Source: Ricordea florida (taxonomy: Eukaryota > Cnidaria > Anthozoa > Corallimorpharia > Ricordeidae). From it: a stretch of 64,000 nt of DNA. Under the pieces are notes generated by a model. It did no database searches and was not told the DNA's origin. It was given only the letters and a program-made list of their open reading frames with translations. Both the position numbers and the translations under genes were made by a program. The DNA lies in the NCBI GenBank assembly GCA_949710005.1, contig OX453274.1, positions 28,123,240-28,187,239 of the forward strand, in the 5' to 3' direction. Below are positions 13,635 through 54,960 of the stretch, one piece after another. Positions within the stretch are counted from its first letter, which is position 1; every line of letters starts with the position of its first letter.

Positions 13635-14015
13635 CTATGGTTAAATCTCGAAATAAACGTCTTATTGTTGATTCAGTTACTCTACAGGTTTTAGATATTT
13701 GGTTTATATTCAATGGATAACTAGTATGTTTCATCGCTGTGACAAAAATGCTGGTAGCTGCCATAGTTTGAGGCCTGTGACTATCAGTCATATTACAGGA
13801 TTCTATTTGATTCGTGACTTCATCAACATGATCTAAGTTTAGATTGAAATTCTAAAGTTTTTTTCGAGTAGCATTAGTTTTCGTCTAAACTCTGAGAGTG
13901 CTTAATGAGCTTTCAGTTAATAATCCATTGTCGGGTATATTACATTGTTCAGGATCTGTTCCATATTCGATGTCACATCCGAAATTTGCACCGCAATTAC
14001 CATGTTTTTAGACAA
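13612..14015 (-). pseudogene. TFIIB-like transcription factor remnant
   Basis: A minus-strand frame with two in-frame TAG codons encodes a small cysteine-containing head (CDIEYG then PEQC, consistent with a zinc ribbon). It is followed by a cyclin-type repeat: HRPQTMAATSIFV, then YPLNINQIS, then VTESTIRRLFRDL. The last block is the classic end of a TFIIB repeat (compare the VTEVTIRNRYKEL type of archaeal and eukaryotic TFIIB). TFIIB recruits RNA polymerase to promoters. The frame overlaps the integrase start on the other strand and ends inside the ATPase start. In Mavericks 1 and 2 this spot holds the capsid protein, so gene content differs. Whether it was captured from the host or inherited is unknown. 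Confidence 0.68.
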
Positions 14016-14347
14016 TTCAGTGAGGAATATTTTTTGGAAGGGTTATTCCGCCATTGAAAAACTAGCAAGTAAAGCCAATGTCAGTGAATCGAAATTGGTC
14101 AGAACAGCAGGCAATCTGGCAAATCTATCTTCCATCTCCAAAATACATACCAAGGCCGAGATGGGTTGTAGATAAGCCAAATTCGGTTCACCAAGCCGAT
14201 TTGTTATTTTTGCCACACGATAGATTTCGAGTTAAAATTTATAAGTATGCATTCGTTGTTGTTGATGTCGCTAGTAGATACAAGGACTCCGAAGCCTTAA
14301 CCTCAAAAAATTCTGAAAAAGTAGCTAAAGCGTTTCAAAAAATTTAT
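14002..14347 (+). pseudogene. integrase of Maverick 0, piece 1 (N-terminus)
   Basis: The N-terminal part of the retrovirus-like integrase, homologous to the intact genes at 29743 and 45200. It includes FWKGYSAIEKLA, then after a frameshift near 14090 the blocks AIWQIYLPSPKYIPRP and HQADLLFLPHD, which carries the first catalytic Asp, and ASRYKDSEALTSK. It stops at KIYS, where Helitron-like element A1 is inserted. The next piece resumes at 35621. Confidence 0.88.
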
Positions 14348-14457
14348 TCCTCGCGAAGCGAGGCCGAAGGCCGAGCGTAGCGAGGTTACTAATCGTGTCG
14401 GTTCCGGTCAGACCACGTGGCTCGCAAGCCCGAGTAAATCGAGCCGAGAGTTTTTAT
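14348..14457 (+). mobile_element. Helitron-like element A1, 5' head
   Basis: Begins with TCCTCGCGAAGCGAGG, a hairpin (6-bp stem, GAA loop). About 105 bp later the sequence is interrupted by element A2, which starts with the same head. The element resumes at 17439. Confidence 0.72.
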
Positions 14458-15488
14458 TTCCTCGCGAAGCGAGGCCGAAGGCCGAGCGTAGCGAGGTTAC
14501 TAATCGTGTCGCTTCCGGTCAGACCACGTGGCTCGCAAGCCCGAGTAAATCGAGCCGAGAGTTTTTATATATGTATATTTATATATATATATATATATAT
14601 ATCTATATTTTAAAGGTGTCCGTTCGCAGGCCAGGTTACCTGGCAATAGTAGCGCACTTGAGAACTGCTGAACCGCCATTTCGAATTCGGTGATGCCTTT
14701 TTGAAAGAAATGTAAATTTTGTGGAAACCGATTTCACTCGTCCTGGAAGTACATCCCAGCAAGATGATCTCCGAGATATTCAAGAAAGATTAGCTCGAGA
14801 TCGTCGCCGAGTAAGTTCAAATACCGTGAAAATCAACACAAGGAAAGCACGACTCAAAGCAGGGATAGAGAAACAACAGCGGGGAGAATAACGACAGACA
14901 TCCGTCATCGCAGCAAAGACAAAAACTGCTCGCCCTAGAAAAAGCCAAACGAAACAGCAGGGAAAAGGACCAGGAATTCAACCAAGTTAGTTTGGAATTT
15001 GAATGTGTTATTGATAGAAATACAGAACATGAGTGAACGGTTACATAACGAAATATATTAGCGTACTAAATTTAGCAAAACGGCTTAGAAGGGAAACCGA
15101 GTAGAAACAACTTCAACGATTGGAGATGTCTCTGGAAAATAATTCTATTAGTCTAAAAACGGAATCGGAAGATGACCAACAGATTACAAGAGAATGTAAG
15201 TAGGTATTTTTCATATTAAAACGATAGCGTTTCCATTTTGAAGAAATTCCCAACACAGAGAGTTACAGTTGTTATAACAATCATTTACAACGATGTGATC
15301 TGATATCATTGCAACAGTGAAAATATTGTCAATTTTCTTGATCTAGCAGTTATGTTTAGCATTTTCAACAGAATATATACCCAGTGTCACTATAAAGTAC
15401 TGGTTCTGCAATATCATCAGTGAACAATGCGATCATTTGAAAATAAAGCAAATGTTATAACTTACTTCTGAGTAGTATTTCTCTTTGC

Positions 15489-15523
<35 letters not shown>

Positions 15524-17438
15524 TCTCTGATTGGAAGGTTTCAATAATATTACGCATAGACAGCAAATTTCATAGCCTTTTCACAATGGGTCAGTTTTAC
15601 CTTAGAGTTCAAGGACCCCCCCCCCCCCCTCCTCTGATAATATTGCAATCTAAAAAACCTGGCCCATTTCCCACAAATGAAATGTTAATTCAAGCCGTAA
15701 TTAAGATATTAACCTTGTCACTTTCTGCTGTTTACTTCATTTTTATGATGTCAAATATCAATATTTAATAACAACTACAACATACAGTTAACATTTTACG
15801 TTGGAAAAACTTTATAAAGAATAAAATAAATTTTGTAATGCCAAAATGTTTGTGATCTTTCTCACATATTCATTGCAAGTGTGCTGTATGTAGTAACAAG
15901 TGTTTCAAGTTTTTTAAATGCCCTATGCTTTCAATAATGATTTTCCACACAAACTTTATAGACAAATAACCGCACTAGATTCTAAGCCTTTAAGAAGAAA
16001 TGGTATTGTTTGGAGCTGTTTTGATTACTACCACCTCTGATGGAAAGCCTATTAAGAAGATTTTCGTATTGCTTGTAGTAGTAGAGTTTCAATACCTTTA
16101 CAAAGGTTAGGACATGCATCCCACCCCATAAAAATATATTATGTTTAACGTAAAAAATATAACAATAGTAATAATAATAATATAAATACCAGTAATAATA
16201 ATAGTAATGATAATAATAATGATAATAATATAATGATAGTGCTTCTCATTACTATATATCATTGGTAACAGTTCAATTCCTCTGGCTGCCATGACTTTTT
16301 CGATGAAATGCCATCCTTATATTAAATCTTTCTTCTGCAGTTTTTATAATAGAAATTTGCATATATTCAAAATAATATAATCTTCTCTTGTTGGGTATGG
16401 ATATTTTGCCTGTCTCTGTAACAGCACAATTAAACTTTCATGTGGTATATACTTTTGACTGATTGATGTTGATTTCACATTATTTTTTTACAGGAGTACA
16501 TAGTGCAGCAATCTTTTTCAACATATTTAGATTTCAATAACTCTTTCTTACATGTATTGTTTTTATGATATGACCTAAAAGTAGCGCAACCACATACTAT
16601 ACAGTCGGCACTCACTATTACCAAACCTTTATTCAAAGCTTTTGTAGAATCCAATTGTTTTACCCCCAATTTTTATTTTTTGGATGTAATGAGATTGTAT
16701 CTCACACTTCTGTTGATATGGCATCTCTTTTGAGGGAAGAGGAATTTTTCTATCTACCACTGGGGGTACCATTGCAACTGAAGAGAGTACACAAATTGAA
16801 ACATGCACTATTCATAATGCTCTCAATTGTGGATACCTAGCAATGAAATAATGACTGCAGTAGACAATAAAATATCTAATCAGAAGATTCTTCTTACAAT
16901 GAATCTCATGCAATTATAACCAAAAAACATCAACCAAAAATAATTGGAGCATTCAACTCATCCTCAGTGTAAGAACATATTGTGTTTAAAAGGGATGTAC
17001 AACAAAGAAGACAAAGCAGTAGAGATTAAAAATAAAAAAAAACAGGTTTTTACACCATGGTAAACACAAGCATTCATATCAACTCTTCAAGACTTCACCT
17101 GCAAAAGATTTACAATCATTTTCAATTTGTGTTAAGTGAATATTGTGGTACTTCATTGACTCTGTATTCCCTGTCAAGACAATAAATAATTTTACTTCTA
17201 TTCTCTCTGGTGCAATCTCATTGGCAGTGAAAGAGCTAAATTAAGGTCAATTTTTAAGCACTGTGTTGACCGGTATACTGATCATGTAATTTGCACCAGG
17301 TGTCACTAATTATGTACCAAACACAGCATAACAAATAAAATAATGGGGACTACGCTGATATAAAAAATAAAATATAAAAGCATTGTGACTTCTTCAAAAA
17401 CTAGCTTCGCGAGGTTTTTGCGGGAGTCGTATTTCTAG
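14458..17438 (+). mobile_element. Helitron-like element A2, non-autonomous, nested in A1
   Basis: About 2.98 kb, starting with the CCTCGCGAAGCGAGG hairpin and ending in GTATTTCTAG. Near the 3' end the sequence CTTCGCGAGG is the inverse of the 5' CCTCGCGAAG. There is no target duplication. A CTAG end, a hairpin, short inverted subterminal repeats and an A/T- or T/T-centred target are features of Helitron/Helentron-type elements. It holds (TA)n and (AAT)n microsatellites, a C-run at about 15617-15630 and no Rep or helicase gene, so it would need helper proteins. It includes the empty target site of Maverick 1 (TAATGG, 17341-17346). Confidence 0.68.
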
Positions 17439-19683
17439 TATATGTATATATATATATGTTTATATATATATATCTATATTTTAAAGGTGTCCGTTCGCAG
17501 GCCAGGTTACCTGGCAATAGTAACGCACTTGAGAACGCTGAATTTCCGCCATTATTCGGTGATGCCTTTTTGAAAGTAATGTAAATTTTGTGGAAATCGA
17601 TTTCACTCGTCCTGGAAGTACATCCCAGCAAGGTTATCTCCGAGATATTCAAGAAAGATTAGCCCGAGATCGTCGCCGAGTAAGTTCGAATACCGTGAAA
17701 ATCAACACGAGGAAAGCACGACTCAAAGCAGGGATAGAGAAACGACAGCAGGGAGAATAACAACAGAACTCGCAGCCAAGACAACAACTGCTCGTTCCAG
17801 AAAAAGGCAAACGAAACAGCAGGGAAAAGGACCAGGAATTCAATCAAGTTAGTTTTGAATTTGAATGTGTTATTGATAGAAATACAGGACATGAGTGAAC
17901 GATTACATAACGAAATATATTGGTGTACTACATTTAGCAAAACGACTTAGAAGGGACACCGAGTAAGAACGACTTCAACGATTGGAGATGTCTCTGGAAA
18001 ATCATTCTATTAGTCTAAAAACGGAATCGGAAGACGACCAACAGATTACAAGAGAATGTAAATAGGTATTTTTCATAATAAAACGATCGCGTTTCCAGTT
18101 TGAAGTAATTCCCAACACAGAGATTTGCAGTTGTTATAGCAATCATTTATAACGATGTGATCTGATATCATTGCAACAGTGAAAATATTGTAAATTTTCT
18201 TGATCTAGCAGTTATGTTAAACATTTTCAACAGAATATATACCCAGTGTCACTATAAAGTACTGGTTCTGCAATATTATCAGTGATCAATAGACAAATGA
18301 CAAATGACTGCACTAGATTGTAAGCCTTTAAGAAGAAATGGTATTGTTTGGAGCTGTTTTGATTACTACCACCTCTGATGGAAAGCCTATTATGAAGATT
18401 TTTGTATTGTTTTTAGTTGTAGAGTAACAATAACTTTACCAAGATTAGGACATGAATCCCACCCCATAAAAATATTTTATGTTTAACATAAAAAATATAG
18501 AACAATAATAATATCAATACCAGTAATAATAATAGAAATGATAATAATAATGATAATAATATAATGATAGTTTGTCTCGTTACTATAAGTCATTGGTTAC
18601 AAGTTCAATACCTCTGGCTGCCATGACTTTTTCGATGAAATACCATCCTTATATTAAATCTTTCTTCTGCAGTTTTTATAATAGAAATTTTCATATATTC
18701 AAAATAATGTACTATTCTATGGTTGGGTATGGATATTTTGCCTGTCTCTGTAACAGCACAATTAAACTTTCATGTGGTATATACTTTTGACTGATTGATG
18801 TTGATTTCACATTATTTTTTTACAGGAGTACGTAGTGCAGCAATCTTTTTGAACATATTAAGATTTCAATAACTCTTTCTTACATGTATTGTTTTTATGA
18901 TATGACCTAAAAATAGCACAACCACATACTATACAGTCGGCACTCACTATTACCAAACCTTTATTCAAAGCTTTTGTAGAATCCAATTGTTTTACCCCCA
19001 ATTTTTTGTTATGTAATGACATTGTATCTCACACTTCTGTTGATATGGCATCTCTTTTGAGTGAAAAGGAATTTTTCTATCTACTACTGGGGGTACCATT
19101 GCAACTGAAAAGAGTACACACATTAAAACATGCACTATTCATAATGCTCTCAATTGTGGTTACCCGGGAATGAAATAATGACTGCAGTAGACAATAAAAT
19201 ATCTAATCAGAAGATTCTTCTTACAATGAATCTCATGCAATTATAACCAAAAAACATAAACAAAAAATAATTGGAGCATTCAACTCATCCTCTGTGTAAG
19301 AACATATTGTGTTCAAAAGTGATGTACAACAAAGAAGACAAAGCAGTAGAGACTAAGAAAATAAAACTAAAGAAAAAAAACACAGGTTTTTACACCGTGG
19401 TAAACACAAGCATTCATATCAAGTCTTCAAGATTTCACCTGCAAAAGATTTACAATCATTTTCAATTTGTGTTAAGTGAATATTATTGTGATACTTCATC
19501 GACTCTGTATTCCCTGTCAAGATAATAAATAATTTTACTTCTATTCCCTCTGGTGCAATCTCAGTGGCAGTGAAAGAGGTAAATGAAGGTCAATTTTTAA
19601 GCACTGTGTTGAGCGGTATACTGATCATGTAATTTGCACCAGGTGTCACTAATTGTGTACCAAACACAGCATAAGAAATAAAA

Positions 19684-19689
19684 TAATGG
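19684..19689 (+). repeat. target site duplication of Maverick 1, left copy
   Basis: TAATGG precedes the left terminus and is repeated at 35493-35498. Six-base duplications are the rule for Mavericks. Confidence 0.9.
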
Positions 19690-20126
19690 ACTACTATGTA
19701 AGCGTGTTTATAAGTTGATTTTTAGGTTATTTTCAAATTTGACAGGAAAATCCCTGACCTTTTTTAGCTTACGGGTTATTTTCAAATTTGACAGGAAAAT
19801 CTCTGTCCTTTTTTAGCTTAAATTTATAAGTTGATTTTTAGGTTATTTTCAAATTTGACAGGAAAATCTCTGTCCTTTTCTAGCTTACGGGTTATTTTCA
19901 AATTTGACAGGAAAATCCCTGACCTTTTTTAGCTTACGGGTTATTTTCAAATTTGACAGGAAAATCTCTGTCCTTTTTTAGCTTAAATTTATAAGTTGAT
20001 TTTTAGGTTATTTTCAAATTTGACAGGAAAATCCCTGACCTTTTTTAGCTTAAATTTATAAGTTGATTTTTTTCAGATTACGAAAAAATTGATTTAAAAG
20101 GATAGGTAATATATATAAGATTATTT
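19690..20126 (+). repeat. left terminal inverted repeat of Maverick 1
   Basis: About 0.44 kb. It contains six copies of a unit of about 49 bp with the core TTTTCAAATTTGACAGG, in which CAAATTTG is palindromic, partly separated by ATAAGTTGATTTTTAG spacers. The inner end holds GATTTAAAAGGATA about 30 nt before the ATG of the first gene. Confidence 0.9.
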
Positions 20127-20516
20127 ATGGATCGGTTAAGAGATTTATATACTTATGAACTAAAAATAATAGCGAAAGATCTTGAAATTAAAGGAAGAGC
20201 AAAAATGAGTAAGCAAGAACTAATTGATGAAATTACAAATTTTAAAGATGAGGAAATTACTGATTTAATTGAAAAAGTTTTTCCCATTAGCAGAATTATT
20301 TGTGATCATGGGAAAATAAAAAAATTTTGTAGCGAATGTAATGGGTATAATTGTGTGCATAATAAATATAAATATCGATGTAAGGAATGTGGAGGATCAC
20401 ATATATGCGTACACAATAAACAAAAACAACAATGTAAAGAATGTGGAGGAAAACAAATATGCGAACATGGCAAACAAAAAGCTTCTTGTAAAGAATGTAG
20501 AAAAAATAAAAATTGA
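20127..20516 (+). CDS. SAP-like plus Cys/His-repeat protein (Maverick 1)
   Basis: A 129-aa protein starting at the inner edge of the terminal repeat. Residues 1-40 resemble a SAP/Rho-N-like DNA-binding helix pair (LYTYELKIIAKDLEIKGR). From about residue 58 follow four repeats of about 18 residues of the form CxH, six residues, CxxC (for example ICVHNKQKQQCKECGG), probably zinc-binding. Such repeats occur in giant-virus and algal proteins. A homologue with five repeats opens Maverick 2, and a related relic lies at 55139. Position and terminal-repeat promoter suggest an early regulatory or DNA-binding role; this is an inference. Confidence 0.75.
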   Translation: MDRLRDLYTYELKIIAKDLEIKGRAKMSKQELIDEITNFKDEEITDLIEKVFPISRIICDHGKIKKFCSECNGYNCVHNKYKYRCKECGGSHICVHNKQKQQCKECGGKQICEHGKQKASCKECRKNKN

Positions 20517-20545
20517 TTTAAAAAAAAAATATAAAATAAAATAAA

Positions 20546-21076
20546 ATGGATAGAAAAGATGCAGAAGAAGAAAATATTACTATTGAATATATTAATGAAG
20601 AAAGATTAGATATATATACTTTTATTACTGTATTAAAGGAATATTTAATGGAAGATATCCCAAAATATAGGTTTTTTATGAGTGAAAAAAGAACAATATT
20701 TGTAAGAAATCTAGGTTTTGAAGAAAATGAAGATTTTGGGTGTACTATTTGTTATGGATTACAGAATATTTTTTTTGTTTTTAGTTTTTGTAAAAATTTT
20801 ACTGATGAAGAGCTTGTTTCAGAATTAATAAAAGCAATGGATAACACTTTTACATATTGGCATGGGAGTGAGCTAAAAAAGAAAATTATTCATGATTCTT
20901 TTTCTTTAAAAATAGAAGTTGACCCATATAAGATATTTTATAAAGAGAATATTTATGAATCTTTATATGATGAACTAATGGTTGTTGCTTGGCATCCAAC
21001 TAGATATTTAGATTGGTGTATTGATTTTGAAGAGTTAAAGTTTTTGAAAGAAGAGGTATGGGGTGAAGAAGATTAA
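20546..21076 (+). CDS. WHPxR-motif protein (Maverick 1)
   Basis: A 176-aa acidic protein in the same direction as the preceding gene, 29 bp downstream. Near the C-terminus it has VVAWHPTRYLDWCIDFEE, a WHPxR..DW motif also found in proteins of large DNA viruses. There are no membrane segments. Maverick 2 has a different gene here. I cannot assign a function; the place suggests an early accessory gene. Confidence 0.7.
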   Translation: MDRKDAEEENITIEYINEERLDIYTFITVLKEYLMEDIPKYRFFMSEKRTIFVRNLGFEENEDFGCTICYGLQNIFFVFSFCKNFTDEELVSELIKAMDNTFTYWHGSELKKKIIHDSFSLKIEVDPYKIFYKENIYESLYDELMVVAWHPTRYLDWCIDFEELKFLKEEVWGEED

Positions 21077-21127
21077 TATTATCTAATTATGTTATATAAC
21101 CTAATTACTGGTTACATAACAAAAAAT

Positions 21128-21760
21128 TTATCTAAATCTTAAACTAAAAGTTATTGGCAATCCCCTTAAATCAAGTTTTTTCCATTCATTGTCTAAGATA
21201 GTTAAATCGAAGTGGTTTATGGGGCTCTCATATTTTTGAACCGGAATTGTAGGATAATCCTTTGAGGGTATGTTTGCAAGTAGGTTTGATGGTGTGAGTT
21301 TCACAAGTTCTCCATATTTGGTGTTATTCATATATGACGACTTATTATCCACTATACTACACATAAGTCTCAACGGTTCCCTAATCTGTATATTTATGGG
21401 GTATAATTTACCAGGATTTAAAACTATAGGAACTCCTAAACCAATTGACAATCCTCTCGTAATTATAACTTTGGAGTTCTTATTTGAATAAAGATAGTCA
21501 ATAGTATCAGTCTCAATTATTGTTATTTTTTCCAGACCAGGATCATTAAGAAAGATTGATTGAATGCCTCTAAGAGAATATGTGCCCGGTTGAATTATGA
21601 AGCTCTGATTCTTGCCATATAATATTGTCTGTTCATCCTTGAAATTAATCAATCTTTTGGTTTGTATATTACAATCCAGGAGCTGTATCTCTCGAAGATT
21701 TTTCAGCGGCGGGTCTAAATAAATCCTGGTTTCTGAATCATACATTGTAATACTGAACAT
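21128..21760 (-). CDS. putative penton / minor capsid protein (Maverick 1)
   Basis: A 210-aa, strand-rich protein, first gene of the leftward block at this end. The C-terminal motif NHFDLTILDNEWKKLDLRG, with LPITFSLRF, resembles the end of single-jelly-roll penton-type proteins of Mavericks and related viruses (…DxDGxxLDLxGxPhTFxh). A close homologue lies at 36880 in Maverick 2. It would form the fivefold vertices of the particle. TTTAAAGA lies 26-33 nt upstream of the ATG. The penton call rests on the C-terminal motif, length and neighbours. Confidence 0.55.
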   Translation of the reverse strand: MFSITMYDSETRIYLDPPLKNLREIQLLDCNIQTKRLINFKDEQTILYGKNQSFIIQPGTYSLRGIQSIFLNDPGLEKITIIETDTIDYLYSNKNSKVIITRGLSIGLGVPIVLNPGKLYPINIQIREPLRLMCSIVDNKSSYMNNTKYGELVKLTPSNLLANIPSKDYPTIPVQKYESPINHFDLTILDNEWKKLDLRGLPITFSLRFR

Positions 21761-21785
21761 TTTTGTTTTGATTACATTAAACTCA

Positions 21786-21793
21786 TCTTTAAA
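21786..21793 (-). promoter_or_regulatory. late-type promoter motif, penton gene (Maverick 1)
   Basis: TTTAAAGA on the coding strand, 26-33 nt upstream of the ATG. Confidence 0.65.
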
Positions 21794-21823
21794 TTGAGCT
21801 ATCTTGGATAATCAAAAAAAACA

Positions 21824-23434
21824 TTAACGAAATAAAAACCAGGATAATAATCCTCCGACAAGAATTAAAACAATAAGATTATTTTGATGAGAAGATTTTT
21901 CTATATTACTAACTTCTTCCTCATTGTTTGATTCATCGCTATTGTTTAGTTTAGGTTTTCTTGGTTGGGGATTGGTATTTAATGAAACTTTTGATGTTCC
22001 TAAACTATTAGGTATTCCAACATTTTTTGTTTCGACATTTATTGAATTATTTACTCCAAAGTTCATATCTTCCGTTACCTTTTTCAAATCATTATTATAC
22101 CCAATAATGCTTTCTGTATTTATTATTAAATTGCTTGGCATTAACCAAACACCAGGAGCTACAGCCAAATCAAGGCGAGATTTTGATTCTTGAACCGCTG
22201 TTTGATATCTTTGAATTGATTTGGATATGTCATTTTCAATCACAGAACTTTCAAATAAAGATATAAAGTTTTGTTGGGTTTCAAAACCGCCACCCCCTTT
22301 ACTAACAATTGAAGTTCTAGTATTAACTTGTGAGCCTAAAACACAATAAACAAAAGCTTCAATTGATCTATTTATTCTTCCCAATCCCGCCTTTGTTAAT
22401 CCATGCCCAGATTCTGCTATAAACCAAGCATATTGAAAATCAACAAAATGATCATTTCGAAGCATTGATACTAAATCTCCTTTATTTTTTCTACCCCCAT
22501 CATCGTAAAATTTATTTTCGCTGCTCGGCCAAATATTAGCTTCTGTATCATAACCTCTTATAATCCTGACATTTTGGTATCCTCCACCCGTTGCTTGCGC
22601 AGATGCGCTCCCAGGAACGCTTCCGGGGTCCACGTATCCTTTTCCATAATCAATGAAAACATCCCCTAAACCATGATTTGCACCCCCCTTAAATCTAAAA
22701 TCAGCTAAAGTTTTATTCCATCCCTTATAATCTTGATTATTACTTAAATAAAATTCTGCGCATAAACGATTATAAGCATTTTTGTTGTATGGATTATTTT
22801 TTAAGGAAAAAGTTTTTTCGTCGGGTAATGGCACGTACAATTCATATAATATTCTTCTTATTGTAAAGTAAATGTGAAATACAAAAAAACTTCTAATAAC
22901 TTTCGGGTAACTAAAAATATCACTTAAACTTACACCGCATCCAGACGTTGCGCACCAAACCGCCATGTTTAATTGTTGCGGCCACTGATTAATATTTGGT
23001 TTACCCAACCAAGCTCTAGCTTCTTTTCCACTAGTAAACCCCACAGTTTGATTTTTAAAAACATTTTTCATTGATGCAGTGAAACTATCTTTTTCTGAAA
23101 CATATATATTTAGATTGATTAATAATTTTGTTACATTAAGAGCAAATTCATCGAATTTAATCCCAGGTATTGGATATTTTTGTTTTGTAAATGTTAAACT
23201 TTTTGGAAATGAACTTACCTTAACTTTATTTTCTAAACCTAAATCTTTCCATAATAATGTTTTTAAATTATCAGGAAGATCATCAGTCCATGTTTTTCCA
23301 GTAGGATCATCATCAGACATAATTGTTGTCCCATTAACTTTCCATTTAATATATCCGCCATATAAATCGTGTACATAATTGAATTTAGTAAGATTTGCTT
23401 TTGGGTAGCGGTTTCTGAAATCACCAAATAACAT
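21824..23434 (-). CDS. C-terminally anchored conserved protein, 536 aa (Maverick 1)
   Basis: I start it at the ATG at 23432-23434, because it matches the Maverick 2 start and lies 31-38 nt from the promoter motif; an open frame upstream begins only with TTG. Residues 1-60 form a YPNA-type domain (RYPKANLTKF to KDLG). The middle carries WPQQLN, then GCGVSL and the near-invariant GHGLTKAGLGRINRS, QVNTRTSI and FESSVIENDI. The C-terminus is a single hydrophobic helix (LIVLILVGGLLSWFL), a tail anchor. I know no function. Abundance of conservation and its place between penton and other membrane proteins suggest a structural protein. Confidence 0.72.
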   Translation of the reverse strand: MLFGDFRNRYPKANLTKFNYVHDLYGGYIKWKVNGTTIMSDDDPTGKTWTDDLPDNLKTLLWKDLGLENKVKVSSFPKSLTFTKQKYPIPGIKFDEFALNVTKLLINLNIYVSEKDSFTASMKNVFKNQTVGFTSGKEARAWLGKPNINQWPQQLNMAVWCATSGCGVSLSDIFSYPKVIRSFFVFHIYFTIRRILYELYVPLPDEKTFSLKNNPYNKNAYNRLCAEFYLSNNQDYKGWNKTLADFRFKGGANHGLGDVFIDYGKGYVDPGSVPGSASAQATGGGYQNVRIIRGYDTEANIWPSSENKFYDDGGRKNKGDLVSMLRNDHFVDFQYAWFIAESGHGLTKAGLGRINRSIEAFVYCVLGSQVNTRTSIVSKGGGGFETQQNFISLFESSVIENDISKSIQRYQTAVQESKSRLDLAVAPGVWLMPSNLIINTESIIGYNNDLKKVTEDMNFGVNNSINVETKNVGIPNSLGTSKVSLNTNPQPRKPKLNNSDESNNEEEVSNIEKSSHQNNLIVLILVGGLLSWFLFR

Positions 23435-23464
23435 CTTATTCTTTTTGTTTTCCAATTTATCTGA

Positions 23465-24178: not shown

Positions 24179-24204
24179 ATTGTATTTTACTGGACGTTAT
24201 GATG

Positions 24205-45166: not shown

Positions 45167-45192
45167 ATTTATTTTAAGGAAGTGCGGGGTAA

Positions 45193-45200
45193 TCTTTAAA
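45193..45200 (-). promoter_or_regulatory. promoter motif, capsid gene (Maverick 2)
   Basis: TTTAAAGA, 27-34 nt upstream of the ATG, touching the integrase ATG on the other strand, so the two genes share this tiny control region. Confidence 0.65.
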
Positions 45201-46201
45201 TGAGTAACGAAAACATATCCCGAAGGTTGTCGAAAATATATTATTCAACTGATGGTTATTGGAAAGGATATTCTGCGATTAATAAATTAGCTGAAAAATC
45301 AAAAGTAAGTGAAGATTTAGCAAAACAATGGCTTGAAAAACAGGCGATATGGCAAATCTATCTTCCGGCTCCCAAGCATATACCTAGACCACACTGGACC
45401 GTGGATAAACCGAATCAGATTCACCAAGCGGATTTATTATTTTTACCGCATGATATAGTTGGAAGAAAAACATATCGATATGCATTGGTTGTGATTGATG
45501 TGGCCTCGAGATACAAAGATGCTGAACCATTAACCTCAAAAGAAAGCAGAGAAATTTCAAATGCTTTTGAAAAAATATATTCTAGAAAAATGAAATATCC
45601 CAAAACATTAATGGTTGATCCAGGAAAAGAATTTATGGGCGCGGTTACAAAACTTATTAATTACCATAATGTAAAAATCCAAAGAAGTGAAGCTGGAAAC
45701 CATAGAGCTCAAGCATTTGTTGAAAGAGCAAACAGAACATTAAGCGAACGATTATTTAGTCATCAATATGCACAAGAAATGATTAGTGATGAAAGGTCAA
45801 GAGTATGGGTAAAAAGATTACCAGATATTATAAAAACTTTGAATAATACGCCAACTAGAATAACCGGTAAAGAACCTGATGATGCTATAAAACTGAAAGA
45901 AGTTTATATTGAACCAAAAAATTACCTACGGGAGGTGGGTCTTGATGAGGTTAGACTACCATCTTATGTTAAAGTTAGATACTTACTTTCTCCTGGTGAA
46001 CTTGAGGGCGGTGAAAAAAGGCGGGCTACAGATCCTATTTGGAGTATTAAAGTTTTTGATATTTATAAAAGTGTGATTTCACCTAATCAACCGGTTTTAT
46101 ATTATTTAATAGATGGCCCAAGACGAGGTTTTGTAAGAGAAGAAATTCAAGTTGTACCATTTGATACTGAACTTCCACCTGATTCTGTTTTTAGACTATA
46201 A
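45200..46201 (+). CDS. retrovirus-like integrase (Maverick 2)
   Basis: 333 aa. N-terminal helical part (WKGYSAINKLAEKSKVSE), then DDE core: Asp in HQADLLFLPHD, Asp in LMVDPGKEFMG, Glu in AQAFVERANR. C-terminal DNA-binding-like module (VRYLLSPGELEGG to VLYYLIDGPRRGF). The start codon overlaps the capsid gene's promoter motif, and its last 55 bp overlap the end of the convergent polymerase gene. Intact, so probably functional. The Maverick 0 copy of the same gene is the target of this element. Confidence 0.93.
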   Translation: MSNENISRRLSKIYYSTDGYWKGYSAINKLAEKSKVSEDLAKQWLEKQAIWQIYLPAPKHIPRPHWTVDKPNQIHQADLLFLPHDIVGRKTYRYALVVIDVASRYKDAEPLTSKESREISNAFEKIYSRKMKYPKTLMVDPGKEFMGAVTKLINYHNVKIQRSEAGNHRAQAFVERANRTLSERLFSHQYAQEMISDERSRVWVKRLPDIIKTLNNTPTRITGKEPDDAIKLKEVYIEPKNYLREVGLDEVRLPSYVKVRYLLSPGELEGGEKRRATDPIWSIKVFDIYKSVISPNQPVLYYLIDGPRRGFVREEIQVVPFDTELPPDSVFRL

Positions 46202-49200
46202 TGTCCATATGGAATAGTATGTTTTCCATCTTTACAAATTATTCTCTTATCATCATCAGCAGATAGTGCAACTTTATTAACAGTTTCAGTATAAATAACG
46301 TGCTTATAACTTCTAATTACTTCCATTTCCCTCATTTGCTTTACTTTATTTTCTAAACATTCCTTGTAATCATAAAATGATATGTCATTTTCTACAACTG
46401 ATTTTTTCATTCCTTTATCCTTTTTTATCTCTTCACCATCATCCATCCTGAAAGAATATAGCTTTGCTCGTAGACCAACAAATTCAGCTATTATTCTACC
46501 ACCAGCTTCATCTTTGAACTTGCCAATTAATTTTTTGTTTACGCCCGTCTCAATACCAGATGGGTGATTTTTGGGATAATTACTAGTATCAAACATCTCT
46601 CTAACATCATAACTTATATCCTTATAGAAATCCTCTGTTTCTATATCATATACAAGACTATCTGTATCTGTCATAAGTAATTTAGCTTTTTCACAATATT
46701 TTGGTTTGATATAATTATAATGAAAGTCATACATTATTGCTTTACTTATATCTAAAATACACATTCCTAAGTAAATAGGTTTATTATATTTTATATGAGT
46801 TATATTCATATGAACCGCCATAAGATTTTCAGAAAAAATAGTGCGACGATTATAGTTAGATTTTGATATTAATTTTTTTGCATCTTTCTCATTCGTAACT
46901 AATCTTATATCCACCCTTTTTCTAAGATTTTCCATAGTTTTCCCAAATACAGAGTTATTCATGAGTTTGAAGAACTCTTTTTCAAAATCATTCTTTGCAT
47001 TAGCCCTAAATTCAGTATTCAAATCAATGTAAGATTTTAACCACACTGACTCTTCGAATTTAATACCTCTATGAATTTTTTTTACTTTTAATCCTAGGCT
47101 TTCATATTTTTTTAGAGTTTCTCGGTGAACTACATACTTTTCCTTATTGTTTAAGTTTGGAATCAATTTATAAACACCATTAACCTTAATTCTCTCAGGA
47201 GCTAGCGGATAGTCACTATGTAAATCATTAAGGTGACGGGGATATTTTATATCAGCCTCGACTATGCACGATATATTTCTCCAATTTTCAATCTCTTCTT
47301 CAATCATCCATTTTAAATCATGAGTAGGGAGTGGTTTACTCATTGCTCCACCATATAGATTATTTGCATCTAAATATTGTATATAATTTTTTGGTTTGTT
47401 AGGGTCATATTCTTTCATGTACGAGTTGTTAGCTTTAGCATATCTATTTGATATCTGAGATATACCCCCTCTAACACCTTTCTCAATCATATTTAGCATA
47501 TCAATGTCAATTATCATCTCCAATTTAACACCAGTTAACTTTAACATAGCATCCCAAGCTAGTCCGGGCGATGTATAATACCAAGCAGGATCCAAACCAT
47601 AATTACTTTGACAAACATCTCTAAAGTTTTCAAATACATCTGCTAATAATAGTACATCTGACTCGAGATATAGATTAAGGTAATCTTGCATTGTTTTCAT
47701 ATTAAAAGTTTTCCATACCTTTTTAGCATGTTTGTAATCATCTTCTGAAATATCTTTACCGTTAAGTTTTGAGTAAAACGCTTCCTTTGTTGGAAGTTGG
47801 GTTTCATTTAGTTTATCAAAATCATCAAGCCAATCATATGGAAATACTCCCTTTCTCAATAATAACTCTAATTTCTCACCAACATGGTATTTTTTACTAT
47901 TTTTAAAAGATTCTTTTGGTAGATAATTTACTAATTTATCAAGACTGGATGGCATAAATTTGAATGAATCTATGAATCTGATATCTCTTTTAACATCTTT
48001 CATCTCTCCACTTTTTTTATCTTTAAAAGTATCAACTACAATCTCTTTTGAGAAAGAAATATACTTTTCCTCGTTATTAGGTATAATTTTTATTTTACCT
48101 TCTGTTTTACTAAGGTTATTAATAAATAGATGAGAATCATAACCCGATAGATTGTGAATTATGACGGGAAAGAATTTTGGAATCTTATAATTTAAGTTAC
48201 ATTCATTATGAGCTGCACCTCTATAATTTCCTGTAAGATGACAGTGGTCTATTACCTTATCTTTAACCAATTCTTTTTCACAAATATGGCAATTAGTTGC
48301 ATTTTTATATTTTATTTCATCATTTTCTGACATCATTTTCTTATTAAATTTTTTAAATCTTTTTACATTATAACTTATACAATTTTTATAAATTTTCTTA
48401 AATTCTGCTTCTATATATTCTACAAATTTCTGTGCTACATCATCTTTTGGTGATTTAGCTGTATATCTATAAAATCTAGATTTACATATTTTTTCATTAA
48501 AACTCTTAATATAACAACCGAATGAAACTGGTTTGTGCCTCTGATATTTATTAGTAAAACTTTTATTTTTATCTAGGATATAATGTTTTTTTATTTTTTC
48601 CAAAATAGACTCAAAATCAACATATGCAATAAAAGGTATTCTCATTTTTTTCATAAAATTTCTAAAAGAAATAAAACATGGTTTACCATCTTTATCTTTT
48701 AACATATCAATCCTAGCTTCATTGTACAAATAACAATATCCTTCATGTTTTTCTAATGTTCTTTTTAAGTGAAAAGAATGTAAACAATTATCACAAAAGA
48801 ACATCTTACATTTACGTTTAGTAACTTGTCTAACTATAAGAGCACTAATATTATTTATTAAACAATAGTGTTTATTTGTTTTTTCTTCATCTTTTTCTTT
48901 ATCTGTTTCTTTATCTGTTTCTTCATCAGTTATTAGAAGTAATCTAATCAATTTAAATCCTCGTTTCCTACTTCTTTTTATAGGATATACTCCCACTTTC
49001 TCATCATATCCAAATATAGCAATATCATAATCATTTTGATCTTCAAAATTAGCAATATCTTGTAATGAAGCGGGAAAATTAATTCCACTCCAATTAAAAT
49101 TCATAGAGTTTTCTATCAATTCTTTATTTACTCTCTGCCTGTTTTTCTTCCTTGGATATACAGCTTCAGTTACACACCACTTTAAACATTCATGATCATT

Positions 49201-50424
49201 CTCATTCTTGGGGTTAATAAGTGCATTCCTGTTTTCTAATTCTGGTGGTAGTGGAATATAAGACCCTCCTAAAATAGGAACAAAACGATCTATGAAAATG
49301 TCAAAGAATAGTACATGATCTAATACCCAACCAGATTCTTTATTTAAAAATTCTTCAAATAATCTAAATTGTTCATTTATTAGTCTATCAAATAATTCTG
49401 ATAAATCTGTTTCTTCAAGAACAATTTCTGATTTTACAGAAGGAAAGTTCGCATCACAGTATTTATATATTTTGTCTATATTATCAAATAATTTTTTTTT
49501 GAATCTGCATGAAAATATAAATTTTGTCTTTAATGATCTTTGTGATTTCACTCTATCTTTAATTAAATTTATAACTTTTGGTTTGATTTTATGCAAGAAT
49601 ACCTTTTCATCATTCTTTTTATTTCCTTCAATCCTATAACTTATATAATTACCTTTTATAGCCGATTCATATTCTTTAGGGGTAAAATCTTCCTCAATTT
49701 CGTCTGTGTCAGATTTTTGTTTTTCATTTTCTTTTTGATTAATTGATTTCTCTTTTTTTACACTTTCATTTGTAATAATTTTTTGTTTTTCTTTAGTATT
49801 TTTATTTATAAGATTTTTAAGATCTTTACCAACAGCCTTAACTCTATCAACTACTTTTGTTGCCTGTTTCTTTATCCAATTAAAAGTTTTATTCTTTGTT
49901 TTTGATTCTTTAATATTTTTAACTAAACTTTTAGCACTATCAACAAAATTATATATAATATTTTTTCTTGGGGTAGGTATGATGTCTTGAGTTTGAGTTT
50001 TATTTTTTCTCATAGCGGTTATGGCGGCTTGTTTAGGCGGTGGAGGGCGAGGAGGTTTAATTTTTATTGTTGGGGATGGAGAAACTGGTGGTGTTTTTAC
50101 CCAAGATCGATCTGGTGAACCTGGAGGAGGGCTATCTGGATTAAATTGATCTGGTAAGCCTTGGGATGTGGGCCTTGGTGTATTATTTAGAATTGGAAGA
50201 GGTAAATTTGGTTGGTCTAGAGGTCTATTTTTTGTAATACGCAAAGCTGCAACAATTTCTCGTTTATTATCAATTATTTCTTGAACATTATTAATTATTT
50301 CAGGAATATTACTCAACTCTCTAATTAGGTCTGCTTTTAAAGTCAATTTTGACCTTCCTTCAATATTATACCATGCGACTAAAGATTTCAATTGTACAAC
50401 AGTTAATCTTTTTAATTGTTCCAT
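46147..50424 (-). CDS. family B (protein-primed type) DNA polymerase with endonuclease-VII-like domain (Maverick 2)
   Basis: 1425 aa from an ATG inside the terminal repeat. Order: SAP-like start (RLTVVQLKSLVAWYN), Pro-rich segment (about 67-120), Lys-rich linker, a Cys-protease-like region (NDHECLKWCV near 412, HYCLI near 520), a C2H2-like finger (CDNCLHSFH), exonuclease I (YVDFESIL near 600), an endonuclease-VII-like zinc/HNH domain (CHICEKEL, DHCHLTGNYRGAAHNECN, near 710), exonuclease II (HNLSGYDSHLF), then palm motifs A (YLDANNLYGGAM near 1015), B (NNSVFGKTMENL near 1157) and C (TDTDSLVYDI near 1250). Its last residues read through the antisense of the integrase gene. Confidence 0.92.
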   Translation of the reverse strand: MEQLKRLTVVQLKSLVAWYNIEGRSKLTLKADLIRELSNIPEIINNVQEIIDNKREIVAALRITKNRPLDQPNLPLPILNNTPRPTSQGLPDQFNPDSPPPGSPDRSWVKTPPVSPSPTIKIKPPRPPPPKQAAITAMRKNKTQTQDIIPTPRKNIIYNFVDSAKSLVKNIKESKTKNKTFNWIKKQATKVVDRVKAVGKDLKNLINKNTKEKQKIITNESVKKEKSINQKENEKQKSDTDEIEEDFTPKEYESAIKGNYISYRIEGNKKNDEKVFLHKIKPKVINLIKDRVKSQRSLKTKFIFSCRFKKKLFDNIDKIYKYCDANFPSVKSEIVLEETDLSELFDRLINEQFRLFEEFLNKESGWVLDHVLFFDIFIDRFVPILGGSYIPLPPELENRNALINPKNENDHECLKWCVTEAVYPRKKNRQRVNKELIENSMNFNWSGINFPASLQDIANFEDQNDYDIAIFGYDEKVGVYPIKRSRKRGFKLIRLLLITDEETDKETDKEKDEEKTNKHYCLINNISALIVRQVTKRKCKMFFCDNCLHSFHLKRTLEKHEGYCYLYNEARIDMLKDKDGKPCFISFRNFMKKMRIPFIAYVDFESILEKIKKHYILDKNKSFTNKYQRHKPVSFGCYIKSFNEKICKSRFYRYTAKSPKDDVAQKFVEYIEAEFKKIYKNCISYNVKRFKKFNKKMMSENDEIKYKNATNCHICEKELVKDKVIDHCHLTGNYRGAAHNECNLNYKIPKFFPVIIHNLSGYDSHLFINNLSKTEGKIKIIPNNEEKYISFSKEIVVDTFKDKKSGEMKDVKRDIRFIDSFKFMPSSLDKLVNYLPKESFKNSKKYHVGEKLELLLRKGVFPYDWLDDFDKLNETQLPTKEAFYSKLNGKDISEDDYKHAKKVWKTFNMKTMQDYLNLYLESDVLLLADVFENFRDVCQSNYGLDPAWYYTSPGLAWDAMLKLTGVKLEMIIDIDMLNMIEKGVRGGISQISNRYAKANNSYMKEYDPNKPKNYIQYLDANNLYGGAMSKPLPTHDLKWMIEEEIENWRNISCIVEADIKYPRHLNDLHSDYPLAPERIKVNGVYKLIPNLNNKEKYVVHRETLKKYESLGLKVKKIHRGIKFEESVWLKSYIDLNTEFRANAKNDFEKEFFKLMNNSVFGKTMENLRKRVDIRLVTNEKDAKKLISKSNYNRRTIFSENLMAVHMNITHIKYNKPIYLGMCILDISKAIMYDFHYNYIKPKYCEKAKLLMTDTDSLVYDIETEDFYKDISYDVREMFDTSNYPKNHPSGIETGVNKKLIGKFKDEAGGRIIAEFVGLRAKLYSFRMDDGEEIKKDKGMKKSVVENDISFYDYKECLENKVKQMREMEVIRSYKHVIYTETVNKVALSADDDKRIICKDGKHTIPYGHYSLKTESGGSSVSNGTT

Positions 50425-50659
50425 TTGTAATTTTGTAATTTGTAATTTATCTTTTTAAATCATATTTTTTTATCATTTTTTTTATCATTTTTTTTTTTAT
50501 ATTTTGCTATAAGATAGAGAAAGTCTGCACAAAAGTCTGTTAGCAGTTAGCTCTTTTAATAGTTCTTCACAAAGCTATTATTAAATTTGAAATAATTAAT
50601 TATATAATAATTCTATAATAATTATATAATTGTGCCAGGACCCCCATACTACTACATCA
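50386..50659 (-). repeat. right terminal inverted repeat of Maverick 2
   Basis: Inverse copy of the left repeat, differing mainly in the length of A/T runs. It contains the first codons of the polymerase. Confidence 0.92.
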
Positions 50660-50664: not shown

Positions 50665-50819
50665 GAAGACATTAGTTGTTGATCCTGAACGGGAATTTAT
50701 GGGTTCCGCAGAAAAATTGATGAAGCAGCATAATGTTATTATACAGAGGAGTGAAGCAAATAACCATAGAGCTCAGGCTTTTGTGGAGAGAGCGAATCGA
50801 ACAATTTCAGAAAAATTAT
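50665..50819 (+). pseudogene. integrase of Maverick 0, piece 3
   Basis: Continues directly after Maverick 2: LVVDPEREFMGSAEKL with the second catalytic Asp, IIQRSEANNHRAQAFVERAN with the catalytic Glu, and ISEKL before Helitron-like element B. The frame is intact here, so this stretch was good coding sequence when hit. Confidence 0.88.
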
Positions 50820-50906
50820 TCCTCGCGAAGCGAGGTTACTAATCGTGTCGCCTTCGGTCAGACCACGTGGCTCGCAAGCCCGAGTAAATCGAGCCGAGAG
50901 TTTTTA

Positions 50907-50953
<47 letters not shown>

Positions 50954-53900
50954 ATTTGAAAGGTGTCCGTTCGCAGGCCAGGTTACCTAGCAACATTACT
51001 TCATATGAATTTCCGCCATTGGGAATACCGTGGATGATGTTTTGAAAATAATGTGAATTTTGTGGAAACCGATTTTTCTAATCCTGGAAGTACATCCTAG
51101 CAAGAAGATCTCCGAGATGCACAAGTAAGAGTGGCGAGAGATCGTCAACGAGTAAGTTTTAATGCCGCAAAAATCAGCACACGGGAAGCGGTGACTAAGA
51201 GGCATCGCAGCAAAGACAACAACTTCTCGCTCAAAAAAGGCAAAGGAAGCAGCAAGGAAAACGACCAGGAATACAATCAAGTTAGATTGGAAATTGAATT
51301 TGTTATCGATAGAAACAAAGACTCATTTTAGCTATACAGCATTCAGAATTTAAGGAAAGTTATGTCAACAGCATACAGACAGAATGAGAAGACAAACGAC
51401 AAAACAGATTGCCATATCGTCGTGAAAAAAGTGCCAAGAAAGGGGAAACAGAAACCAACCGCAAAGAAATGAAAGATTACAGTAGTTTCAATACAGCAAT
51501 GACAATGCAAGTAAGTATTTTTCGTACCAAAACGATAGCTATCCATTTTGAAGAAATTCCCAATACAGAGACTGCAGTTGTGATAGCAATTATTTATAAT
51601 TATGTGATCTGATATCGTTGCAACGGTGAAAATATATTGTAGATTTGTCTGTTGTAGCAGTTATGTTCAGCATTTGAAACAGAAAAGATACTTAACAATT
51701 AGTGACTGGTTCTGCAATATTATCAGTGATCAATGCAATTCTTTGAAAATAAAGCAGATGGTACCGTAATTTCCGGCAGATTACGCGCGGGTAATGTGTT
51801 AATTTTTCCGCAAACAGTTGTTGGTGCGAGGTATAGGAAGGTGCGGGTAATGCAATAATTTTTAGAGCTACCGGTAAAGTTTAAAACCGTAAGCTAACCA
51901 GGAAAACAGAGATGATAAGATACGTACTCTTCCCAAGACCCGTGTATTGCCTTATCTACTTCGCCTTCATTGCTTATTCTAATAACAGACTTTTCTGCTC
52001 TTGATGAAAGCCGAACAAATTGAACCAAAATCGATAGATAAACAAATCTTTTATCGTGTTTGTGCTATTTCTTTCTTTCCTTGTCCAGCTTGTTTCTTTG
52101 TTAGTTAAGAAAAAACATTCCTCACTTACACGGGTATTGAACTTGAAAATAAATTAATTTAAATGTGAAAAAGCAGGCTTCACAAGCACGCAAAAATGAT
52201 GCCGACATGTTCATTTCATGGCCACGCCTAATTAATGACGCGACAAGGAAAGTGATTGTCGGCACACGTGTAAACAAACATTCGCAGCTCAAAATTTTAC
52301 AATACCGGAATATTCGACGCATCAGTGAAATATTCTTAGCTATCACTGCTTTGAGTTAAGGAGTACATTCCCGTTTCGAGCGATTTCTTAGACTCAGTAG
52401 GTCCTGAGATATCTATTTTTTTGAGGACAGATTTTTACAAGCGCTATTATTTCCAATGAAACATCGAAAAAAATGGTTGTGAAAATGTACTAATTGCACG
52501 CAAAAGGATACCACGTCAACAAAAACAATGAATGAAGTTTTTACCTGATTCAAAACGTTATAAAAAGGTAACTGACAGCAATTTACAATCTCCGATCATT
52601 TACGATAATTGTAGCAACATGCCCGGTGTAAAACGTGCACACGTCAGAGTTTCAAGATGATTTTGGAAGTCGCTTTTCGCTGAGTAGTATTTCTCTTTGC
52701 TATATATCTTTGCTACATATACCGTATGTATTAAGTAATTAAAAGGTTTTGTTGGTACTGACAAGTTCCTTAGCCTTTTGTAAATGGATTTTTACCTTTG
52801 AGTTCCAGGTATCCCTGGGAAAAACTCTCTTAGTCCCCACACTTTTCCCACAAATGAAAAATTCCTTTAGGCCCTACTTTGCAAAATTAGGCATAACATC
52901 TTAACCTTTTTCCTTAATGCTGTTTAATTCATTTTTATGATGTCAAATATTTAACAACAACTGCAATATACAGTTGACCTTTTACATTGGGAAGACTAAA
53001 GTTTGTAATGCCTAAATTTTCGCGATCTTTCTTATATATTCATTGCAAGGGTGCTGTATGTAATAACAAGTCTCTAAAGTTTCCTAAAAGCTCTGTGCTT
53101 TCAATCATGATTTTCCACACTAACTGTATGGACTAATTCATTTTTATGATGTCAAATAGAAATATTTAATAACAACTACAATATACAGTTGACATTTTAC
53201 ATTAAAAAAACTCTACAAAGGAGAAACTAAAGTTTGTAATGCCAAAATTTTTATGATCTTTCTTATGTATTCATTCCGAGGTTGCTGTATGTAATAACAA
53301 GTCTTTGAAGTTTCCTAAATGCCCTATACTTTCAATCATGATTTTCCACACTAACTGTATGGACAAATGACTGCACTAGCATGATTGCTGCAGGTCAGGA
53401 AATTGTGAGGGAAAAAATTCTTCAAGCAAGAGAAAAGTCAGGGAATTTCATTTCCAGTAAGGGAAAGTTTAAGTCTTTGAGAAAAGTCAGGGAAAAGTGA
53501 AATTTAAGAGTTCTAATTTATTTATTGCCAATTCAGCTATGGTTTGGTGTAATTAAGAATGTGACATGAAATGTGTTGGAGTGGTAGAATTAAATGACAA
53601 GCTGATTTTGGATTGCCTAAAAAATCAATCCTTTTTCCATGACTTTGTTACCTTAAGAAACTATCAATCCATATGCACTGTATGTGACTTTCTGAAAGCA
53701 TATTAAATAAATGAGTGGAGAGGTTGGCTGTGAGGTGGGACTAATTTGTGAATTTTCTTATTTCGTTGGTAAGGGAAATTTTACATTTGTCAGGAAAAAG
53801 TAGGGGAATTTCAAGATCCTGTGGCTGTGGCAACCATAACTAGACTCTAAGCCGAAAAAAAGAAATGGTATTGTTCAGAGATGAGTAATTTTTACCACAA

Positions 53901-54254
53901 CTGATACAAACCCTTAATTCAGAAGAAAACTGTATTGCTTGTAGTAATAGAGAAACAATACCTTTACCCAGATTAGGACATACACCCCCACCCCATAACA
54001 GTATATTATGTTAAACATAAAAAAATAACAATAATAATAATATCAATACCAGCAATAACAATAATAATAATAATAATGGTAATAATACAATAATAGGCAT
54101 GATAATAATTACAAGAACTGAGAAAGTAAAAAAAGTGATAATGATATAAGTAAATACATAAATTGGGGTTCTATCCCTCATGGGAAAAACCACCATGAGC
54201 CATGAGTTCTTTAAAAGCTAGCTTCGCGAGGTTTTGCGGGAGTCGTATTTCTAG
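50820..54254 (+). mobile_element. Helitron-like element B, non-autonomous
   Basis: 3.4 kb, with the same ends as A1 and A2 (CCTCGCGAAGCGAGG hairpin at the start, CTTCGCGAGG and GTATTTCTAG at the end) but more diverged inside. It sits in the integrase gene of Maverick 0 without target duplication, between A/T-rich bases. It has (TA)n at about 50900-50950, (AAT)n near 54020-54100, and a segment at 51050-51530 that matches A1 and A2 and looks exon-like. No transposase gene. Confidence 0.7.
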
Positions 54255-54370
54255 TTTAGTCACCAATATTCCCAAGAAATGCTCATGGAAGATAGATCAA
54301 GGGTGTGGGTTAAAAGACTTCCAGATATTATTCAGACGTTAAATTCAACTCCAACACGTTTGACTGGTAA
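54255..54370 (+). pseudogene. integrase of Maverick 0, piece 4
   Basis: Resumes after element B with EMLMEDRSRVWVKRLPDIIQ and LNSTPTRLTGK, matching the intact integrases. It ends at the TAA target site of the MITE. Confidence 0.88.
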
Positions 54371-54669
54371 GGGCGGACCATTAGAAAAGTGATGGGGAGG
54401 GGGGGTGGGGAATTTTCAGCTTGCACGAATTCTTTTTTTCGCTCACTGCTTGTGCATGAATTTTTTTTCAGGTGAACCCCTCTGCACGAATTTTTTTTAC
54501 TACGTGTGAAAAATTCACAATTGGACCTTCCTTCTGTATGAATTTTTTTTTTCCTTCTTGTTTGCATGAATTTTTTTCTTGGCATTTTCCCTTGCATGAA
54601 TTTTTTTTTGTTTTTTTTTTTCCCAATACCCCCCCTCCCCTCCCCATCACTTTTCTAGTGGTCCGTCCC
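54371..54669. mobile_element. 299-bp MITE, PIF/Harbinger-like
   Basis: Terminal inverted repeats of about 30 bp (GGGCGGACCATTAGAAAAGT at the left, with the inverse at the right) and a 3-bp duplication TAA (54368-54370 and 54670-54672). TAA/TWA duplications are typical of PIF/Harbinger elements. The inside holds about six copies of TGCAYGAATTTTTTT-like motifs. No coding capacity. Confidence 0.82.
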
Positions 54670-54672
54670 TAA

Positions 54673-54960
54673 AGAGCCGGTGACGGTAGAGGTAAGGTAG
54701 AGATTAAGCTTGTAAATTATAAACGGCCCATAGGTACGTATGAGGCGAGGTTACCCATGGGTGTTTATGTCAGATATTTATTGGCGTCGAGTGAATTAGA
54801 AGAAGGTCAAATAAGGCCTACTGACCCTCATTGGTCGATTGAGGTTTAGGAATTAGATGGAATTGTTGTTTCCAAAGGTCAACGTGTATTATATTATTTG
54901 GTTAATGGGCCGAGGCGTTTTTTTACCAGGGAAGAGCATACGGTGTTGAATTTAGTGTGA
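54673..54960 (+). pseudogene. integrase of Maverick 0, piece 5 (C-terminus)
   Basis: C-terminal part: the KRPIGTYEARLPMGVYVRYL block, LEEGQIRPTDPHWSIEV, an in-frame TAG, then VLYYLVNGPRR and the final TGA at 54958-54960. One stop and one small frame change suggest decay after or around the insertions. Confidence 0.85.

What the first reader, a model, noticed from the sequence alone, without database searches (positions are those of the whole stretch)
14002..54960. One integrase gene cut into five pieces by a nest of at least six transposons
The integrase reading frame of Maverick 0 can be followed through pieces at 14002-14347, 35621-35641, 50665-50819, 54255-54370 and 54673-54960. Between them lie Helitron-like A1 (with A2 and Maverick 1 inside), Maverick 2, Helitron-like B and a MITE. 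Each joint agrees with the intact integrases at 29743 and 45200. This gives a relative order: Maverick 0 first, then A1, B, the MITE and Maverick 2 separately into it, then A2 and Maverick 1 into A1. It also means a stretch of about 0.9 kb attracted four independent insertions.
Basis: seen in the sequence. Interest (0 to 1): 0.88.

Follow-up and report, generated by a model that had tools for sequence, protein, structure and literature searches.

The report
Dead transposon gene split by insertions
An old, already broken virus-like transposon has had its integrase gene interrupted by four later mobile elements, two more sitting inside one of those; the layering is real and readable but is ordinary behaviour of mobile DNA.

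Summary
The Maverick 0 integrase lies in five pieces, in order, on one strand. Four pieces sum to 548 nt; the same stretch of both intact integrases is 549 nt, the missing base lying across the next joint. The inserts have their own ends: terminal repeats with duplicated targets for Mavericks 1 and 2 and the MITE; hairpin/CTAG ends without duplication for the Helitron-like elements.

The proposed order is partly wrong. The outer Helitron-like element is A2; A1 (14458-17438) sits inside A2, not the reverse. Maverick 1 is in A2.

A1, A2 and B resemble non-autonomous Helitron2/Helentron elements. The four direct hits fall within 291 nt: nominally unlikely (0.0005-0.02 for 5-10 insertions in 9-10 kb), but noticed after the fact, at one locus, without motif enrichment. 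Comparing the pieces apart with 122 intact integrases gave no support for common origin; the test is weak. The host genome could not be searched.

Verdict: a real, readable nest of known element types; interest low to moderate.

The parts
14002..14346 (+). Maverick 0 integrase, piece 1 (aligned from 14032; contains a frame change)
   Evidence: tblastn; pieces translated apart
35621..35641 (+). Maverick 0 integrase, piece 2 (21 nt)
   Evidence: length and phase
50665..50818 (+). Maverick 0 integrase, piece 3
54255..54370 (+). Maverick 0 integrase, piece 4
54673..54960 (+). Maverick 0 integrase, piece 5 (aligned 54694-54948; one stop)
14347..14457 (+). Helitron-like A2, outer element, first 111 bases
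   Evidence: 1 mismatch of 111 to the A1 5' end
14458..17438 (+). Helitron-like A1, both ends present, inserted in A2
17439..19689 (+). Helitron-like A2, second part (ends with target copy TAATGG); lacks about 0.5 kb that A1 has (15429-15960)
   Evidence: 6.1% mismatches to A1 over 2234 aligned bases; self-comparison
19690..35492 (.). Maverick 1 in A2, 15.8 kb, terminal inverted repeats, long open frames including capsid-like, ATPase, integrase and putative polymerase
35493..35620 (+). Helitron-like A2, last part (begins with target copy TAATGG), with 3' hairpin and CTAG end
35642..50659 (.). Maverick 2, 15.0 kb, terminal inverted repeats (1 mismatch in 268 aligned bases, 12 gap columns), target copy TGGCT or ATGGCT
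50819..54254 (+). Helitron-like B, same family as A1/A2
   Evidence: self-comparison; ends
54371..54669 (.). MITE with terminal inverted repeats, target copy TAA
9895..13622 (-). Maverick 0 left arm, decayed capsid-side genes and ATPase remnant
   Evidence: tblastn
55997..60165 (-). Maverick 0 right arm, putative polymerase remnant, interrupted at 57047-58322
   Evidence: tblastn

Best explanation
An old Maverick/Polinton copy (Maverick 0) decayed after insertion. Its integrase gene was hit by four independent insertions: A2 and B (two members of one non-autonomous Helitron2/Helentron-like family), a MITE and Maverick 2. Later A1, of the same family as A2, inserted into A2 beside its TA microsatellite, and Maverick 1 inserted into another part of A2. 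Each element used its ordinary mechanism: rolling-circle insertion without target duplication for A1, A2 and B (inferred from the termini), integrase-mediated insertion with a 5-6 bp target duplication for the Mavericks, and cut-and-paste with a 3-bp duplication for the MITE. Shown: the pieces, the ends, the target copies, A1 and Maverick 1 inside A2. Inferred: the mechanisms; that the insertions were neutral hits in an already dead element. Not resolvable by nesting: the order among A2, B, the MITE and Maverick 2, or between A1 and Maverick 1.
For: Piece order, strand and similarity; 548 nt against 549-1 nt and matching phases; target copies TAATGG (Maverick 1), TGGCT/ATGGCT (Maverick 2), TAA (MITE); A2, B and A1 share TTCCTCGCGAAG...TCGTATTTCTAG ends, with flanking bases A/TT, A/TT and T/TA; A2 across A1 reads like A1 and B, and A2 across Maverick 1 reads like A1; in Maverick 0 the capsid-like protein has no match and the ATPase only a partial one.
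Against: Similarity rankings of the separately compared pieces do not correlate as they do in the 122 intact integrases used as controls: for pieces 4 and 5 the value is -0.32 and 0 of 122 controls are as low; for the other nine pairs 1 to 24 of 122 controls are as low as Maverick 0. Maverick 0 is an outlier to those controls, which were chosen by closeness to integrase 2, so the test is weak, but it gives no support. At A1's insertion one extra T remains unexplained. The two 111-base units are more alike than the rest of A1 and A2. No allele or read without an insertion was seen.
Confidence: 0.9

Rival explanations
1. A1 and A2 are a head-to-tail pair made by one rolling-circle event or a tandem duplication, with a separate 111-bp duplication at the 5' end and a 5' truncated second copy.
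For: Tandem Helitron insertions are reported (passages of PMC5148889, and PMC7492417; the latter speaks of truncation at the 3' end, here it would be the 5' end); the two 111-base units differ at only 1 of 111 positions while A1 and A2 differ by 6.1% over 2234 aligned positions elsewhere.
Against: It needs three coincidences that A1-in-A2 predicts: the duplication begins at the element's first base, the unit ends where A2 resumes, and A2's two parts read across as an intact element. The 5' end is also the better kept part against B (5 mismatches in 88 aligned positions, 25 gap columns; local matches further inside are 78-86% identical), which can account for the low divergence.
Confidence: 0.07
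2. The integrase core is a true insertion hotspot for unrelated elements (chromatin, DNA structure, or tolerance at this site).
For: Four direct insertions within 291 nt; with 5 insertions in 9-10 kb simulated probability 0.0005-0.0006, with 10 insertions 0.016-0.022, with 12 insertions 0.035-0.047.
Against: One locus, noticed because of the cluster; insertions in unalignable parts of Maverick 0 would be missed; for four within 930 bp the values are 0.013-0.018 (5 insertions) to 0.51-0.60 (12); integrase pieces are not richer in TTAT (19.5 per kb against 18.3 and 24.9 in the two arms) nor in TAA (52.0 against 65.5 and 75.8).
Confidence: 0.05
3. Assembly error joining pieces of different integrase copies.
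For: Uncorrelated similarity rankings of the pieces; repeats are hard to assemble.
Against: Agreement in length and phase over three joints, and target copies at the Maverick 2 and MITE joints, are not expected from misjoining.
Confidence: 0.03

Closest known systems
Nested transposon insertions, e.g. plant LTR retrotransposons (PMC6911290, abstract and section list seen)
   Same: Younger elements inside older ones; [quoted passage not shown]
   Different: Here DNA elements (Maverick, Helitron-like, MITE); that abstract says coding regions are not commonly targeted, here a (dead) coding region is hit
Maverick/Polinton elements
   Same: rve integrase, A32-like ATPase, capsid-like protein (weak match), two large putative polymerase frames, terminal inverted repeats, 5-6 bp target copies in Mavericks 1 and 2
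   Different: No difference of kind found
HINE/DINE-1, Helentron and Helitron2 elements (PMC4067079, PMC5148889, PMC7492417; passages seen)
   Same: Palindromic 5' end, inverted repeat placed asymmetrically, microsatellite, 3' hairpin, no target duplication; TT...CTAG ends between A and T as reported for proto-Helentron-Pi (PMC4067079)
   Different: No coding partner was seen in the window; the TT-dinucleotide preference of Helentrons is not clear-cut here

Membership tests
Maverick/Polinton (Mavericks 1 and 2) | rve integrase | tested here: met
   PF00665, 38.8 and 35.7 bits over a cut-off of 32.6
Maverick/Polinton (Mavericks 1 and 2) | packaging ATPase of A32/FtsK type | tested here: met
   PF04665, 45.5 bits over a cut-off of 22.8, for Maverick 1; the Maverick 2 gene was not scanned but is 84% identical in DNA
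Maverick/Polinton (Mavericks 1 and 2) | double jelly-roll major capsid protein | tested here: inconclusive
   Maverick 1 412-aa protein: PF16903 19.3 bits, under the cut-off of 24; no fold predicted
Maverick/Polinton (Mavericks 1 and 2) | protein-primed type B DNA polymerase | tested here: inconclusive
   1455- and 1435-aa frames, no Pfam polymerase match; 168 of 722 columns identical between them; assignment as polymerase is recalled from motifs
Maverick/Polinton (Mavericks 1 and 2) | terminal inverted repeats and 5-6 bp target duplication | tested here: met
Helitron2/Helentron-like non-autonomous element (A1, A2, B) | asymmetric inverted repeat and hairpin at both ends | tested here: met
   CCTCGCGAAGC at the 5' end, its reverse complement about 25-30 nt inside the 3' end (for A1); folds of A1 and B 5' ends and of A1, A2, B 3' ends
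Helitron2/Helentron-like non-autonomous element (A1, A2, B) | no target site duplication | tested here: met
   flanks; T run ambiguous by 1-2 bases
Helitron2/Helentron-like non-autonomous element (A1, A2, B) | autonomous Rep/helicase partner with the same ends | not testable with these tools
   longest frame 108 aa in A1, A2 (second part) and B; own genome did not complete
MITE (54371-54669) | short, terminal inverted repeats, short target copy | tested here: met
   47-nt arms 87% complementary, target copies included; TAA on both sides

The most novel reading that the evidence does not exclude
The core of decayed Maverick integrase genes is a preferred landing place for unrelated transposons, including two members of one Helitron-like family.
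Probability: 0.05. Interest if true: 0.5.

Novelty: new member of a known kind. Interest (0 to 1): 0.25.

Why it matters
It is a clean stratigraphic section of mobile DNA: the layers give relative ages for two Maverick copies with open frames and a Helitron-like family, and define the ends of that family. It changes no view of how these elements work.

Tried and rejected
Piece-by-piece relationship test: the first version read piece 1 partly in the wrong frame because of its frame change, and gave correlations from -0.60 (pieces 4 and 5) to 0.20; repeated with piece 1 in two parts. Neither supports common origin; the test is inconclusive. Relatives in viral contigs: 5 stretches matched a pattern, 0 confirmed. 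The 17-base Helitron-like start in viral contigs gave 4 contigs, not examined. Rfam: 0 matches at gathering score. Similarity between the left 14000 bases and the right 9100 bases, either strand, to find the ends of Maverick 0: none at E 0.01. Terminal repeat divergence as a clock: usable for Maverick 2 (1 mismatch in 268, 12 gap columns), not for Maverick 1 because of tandem repeats (21 mismatches in 405, 40 gap columns). A whole-length alignment of A1 with B was poor (44% mismatches) and was not used; local matches were. Papers: search listings (titles and starts of abstracts) (20 of 33 shown; 20 of 86; 12 of 44; 10 of 10; 10 of 32); passages of PMC5148889, PMC4067079, PMC7492417; abstract and section list of PMC6911290. 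No title or abstract start in those listings reports a Maverick integrase as an insertion hotspot; this is not a full search.

Full report
Check. The two intact integrases of the window (329 and 333 aa, both with Pfam rve above the cut-off; 82.5% identical) were compared with the window by tblastn. Besides each other they find four further stretches, 14032-14356, 50666-50821, 54255-54371 and 54694-54948, on the + strand and in gene order, E 9e-42 to 7e-13 for the first integrase; other rows have E of 1.2 or worse. The 21-base piece 35621-35641 rests on length and phase: 257+21+154+116 = 548 nt against 549 nt in both intact genes for the same residues, the last base lying beyond the MITE; each piece translated apart in the required phase gives the expected residues. 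A frame change in piece 1 and a stop in piece 5 show that the gene is also broken by small changes; the alignment resumes too soon after the MITE for an unchanged length, so a further change lies there (inference).

The inserts. Maverick 2 (35642-50659) has terminal inverted repeats with 1 mismatch in 268 aligned bases and 12 gap columns, a copy of TGGCT (or ATGGCT) on each side and long open frames. The MITE (54371-54669) has 47-nt arms 87% complementary, target copies included, and TAA on both sides. B (50819-54254), A1 and A2 begin TTCCTCGCGAAG and end in a hairpin followed by GTATTTCTAG, with no target duplication beyond an ambiguous T run. Maverick 1 (19690-35492) lies in A2 with TAATGG on each side.

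Correction of the nest. Tandem Repeats Finder reports a 111-bp unit twice at 14343-14568. The first copy begins at the joint with the integrase; the second begins an element that runs to CTAG at 17438; the sequence after 17438 is what follows the 111-base unit in A1 (family D3). Read across A1, A2 is the same as A1 and B at that place apart from one T and microsatellite length. So A1 is inside A2. The two 111-base units differ at 1 of 111 positions, while the second part of A2 differs from A1 at 6.1% of 2234 aligned positions and lacks about 0.5 kb of it. The 5' end is also the better kept part against B (5 mismatches in 88 aligned positions with 25 gap columns; 78-86% identity in local matches further inside).

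What A1, A2 and B are. A palindromic 5' end, an inverted repeat at the 5' end matched by one 25-30 nt inside the 3' end, a TA microsatellite, a 3' hairpin, CTAG and no target duplication fit descriptions of HINE/DINE-1 and Helitron2 elements (passages of PMC4067079; PMC5148889; PMC7492417). TT at the start, CTAG at the end and insertion between A and T are reported for proto-Helentron-Pi (PMC4067079). The longest stop-to-stop frame in A1, the second part of A2 and B is 108 aa, so they are taken as non-autonomous. The autonomous partner was not found; the genome could not be searched.

Is the cluster special? The four direct joints lie within 291 nt. From 9895 to 60165, less the inserts, about 9 kb of Maverick 0 remain (923+4107+3929 bases), with one further interruption at 57047-58322. 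With 5 uniformly placed insertions in 9-10 kb, four fall within 292 bp in 0.0005-0.0006 of simulations; with 10 insertions in 0.016-0.022, with 12 in 0.035-0.047; four within 930 bp in 0.013-0.018, 0.30-0.36 and 0.51-0.60. The cluster was noticed before the test and unseen insertions raise the number, so this is at most suggestive. TTAT and TAA are not enriched in the integrase. Non-random nesting is described for plant LTR retrotransposons, where coding regions are not commonly hit (abstract of PMC6911290).

Result against. Each piece was compared with 122 intact integrases (the 120 listed of 3187 relatives, plus the two of the window; the 21-base piece was left out). Rank correlations between pieces run from -0.32 to 0.42; the same slices of the 122 intact proteins give medians of 0.48 to 0.78, and for pieces 4 and 5 none of 122 controls is as low. 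Pieces 4 and 5 are separated only by the MITE with its TAA copies and agree in position, so I read this as Maverick 0 lying outside the sampled group, or recombination in its ancestry, rather than as different genes; this is inference.

Host. Not identified; a marine invertebrate such as a cnidarian is a guess recalled from the look of the retrotransposon proteins, tested by no call.

Verdict. Real, precisely readable, ordinary in kind; one correction to the order of events.

Noticed in passing
30734-35101 and 46147-50454: Mavericks 1 and 2 share stretches of the integrase, ATPase and capsid-side genes at 72-87% DNA identity, but their large putative polymerase frames align at only 23% over 722 columns, which suggests exchange of the polymerase module. 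Maverick 0's remnant matches the Maverick 2 type only.
   Followed up: partly
57047-58322: A further interruption of the Maverick 0 polymerase remnant, with a 184-bp palindrome at 57095-57278; element type not determined.
   Followed up: partly
3338-7169: Gypsy-like retrotransposon on the - strand with reverse transcriptase, H2C2 and integrase core (rve 31.2 bits, under the cut-off of 32.6).
   Followed up: no
2078-2316, 8268-8494, 8876-9113: Related DNA copies, two of which match the start of the 528/547-aa Maverick proteins, outside the recognised Maverick 0 arm.
   Followed up: no
35841-36308: Maverick 2 carries a frame with a Rho_N match and repeated Cys/His units beginning in its terminal repeat; its first 23 residues equal the start of the 1435-aa frame, through the inverted repeat.
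   Followed up: no
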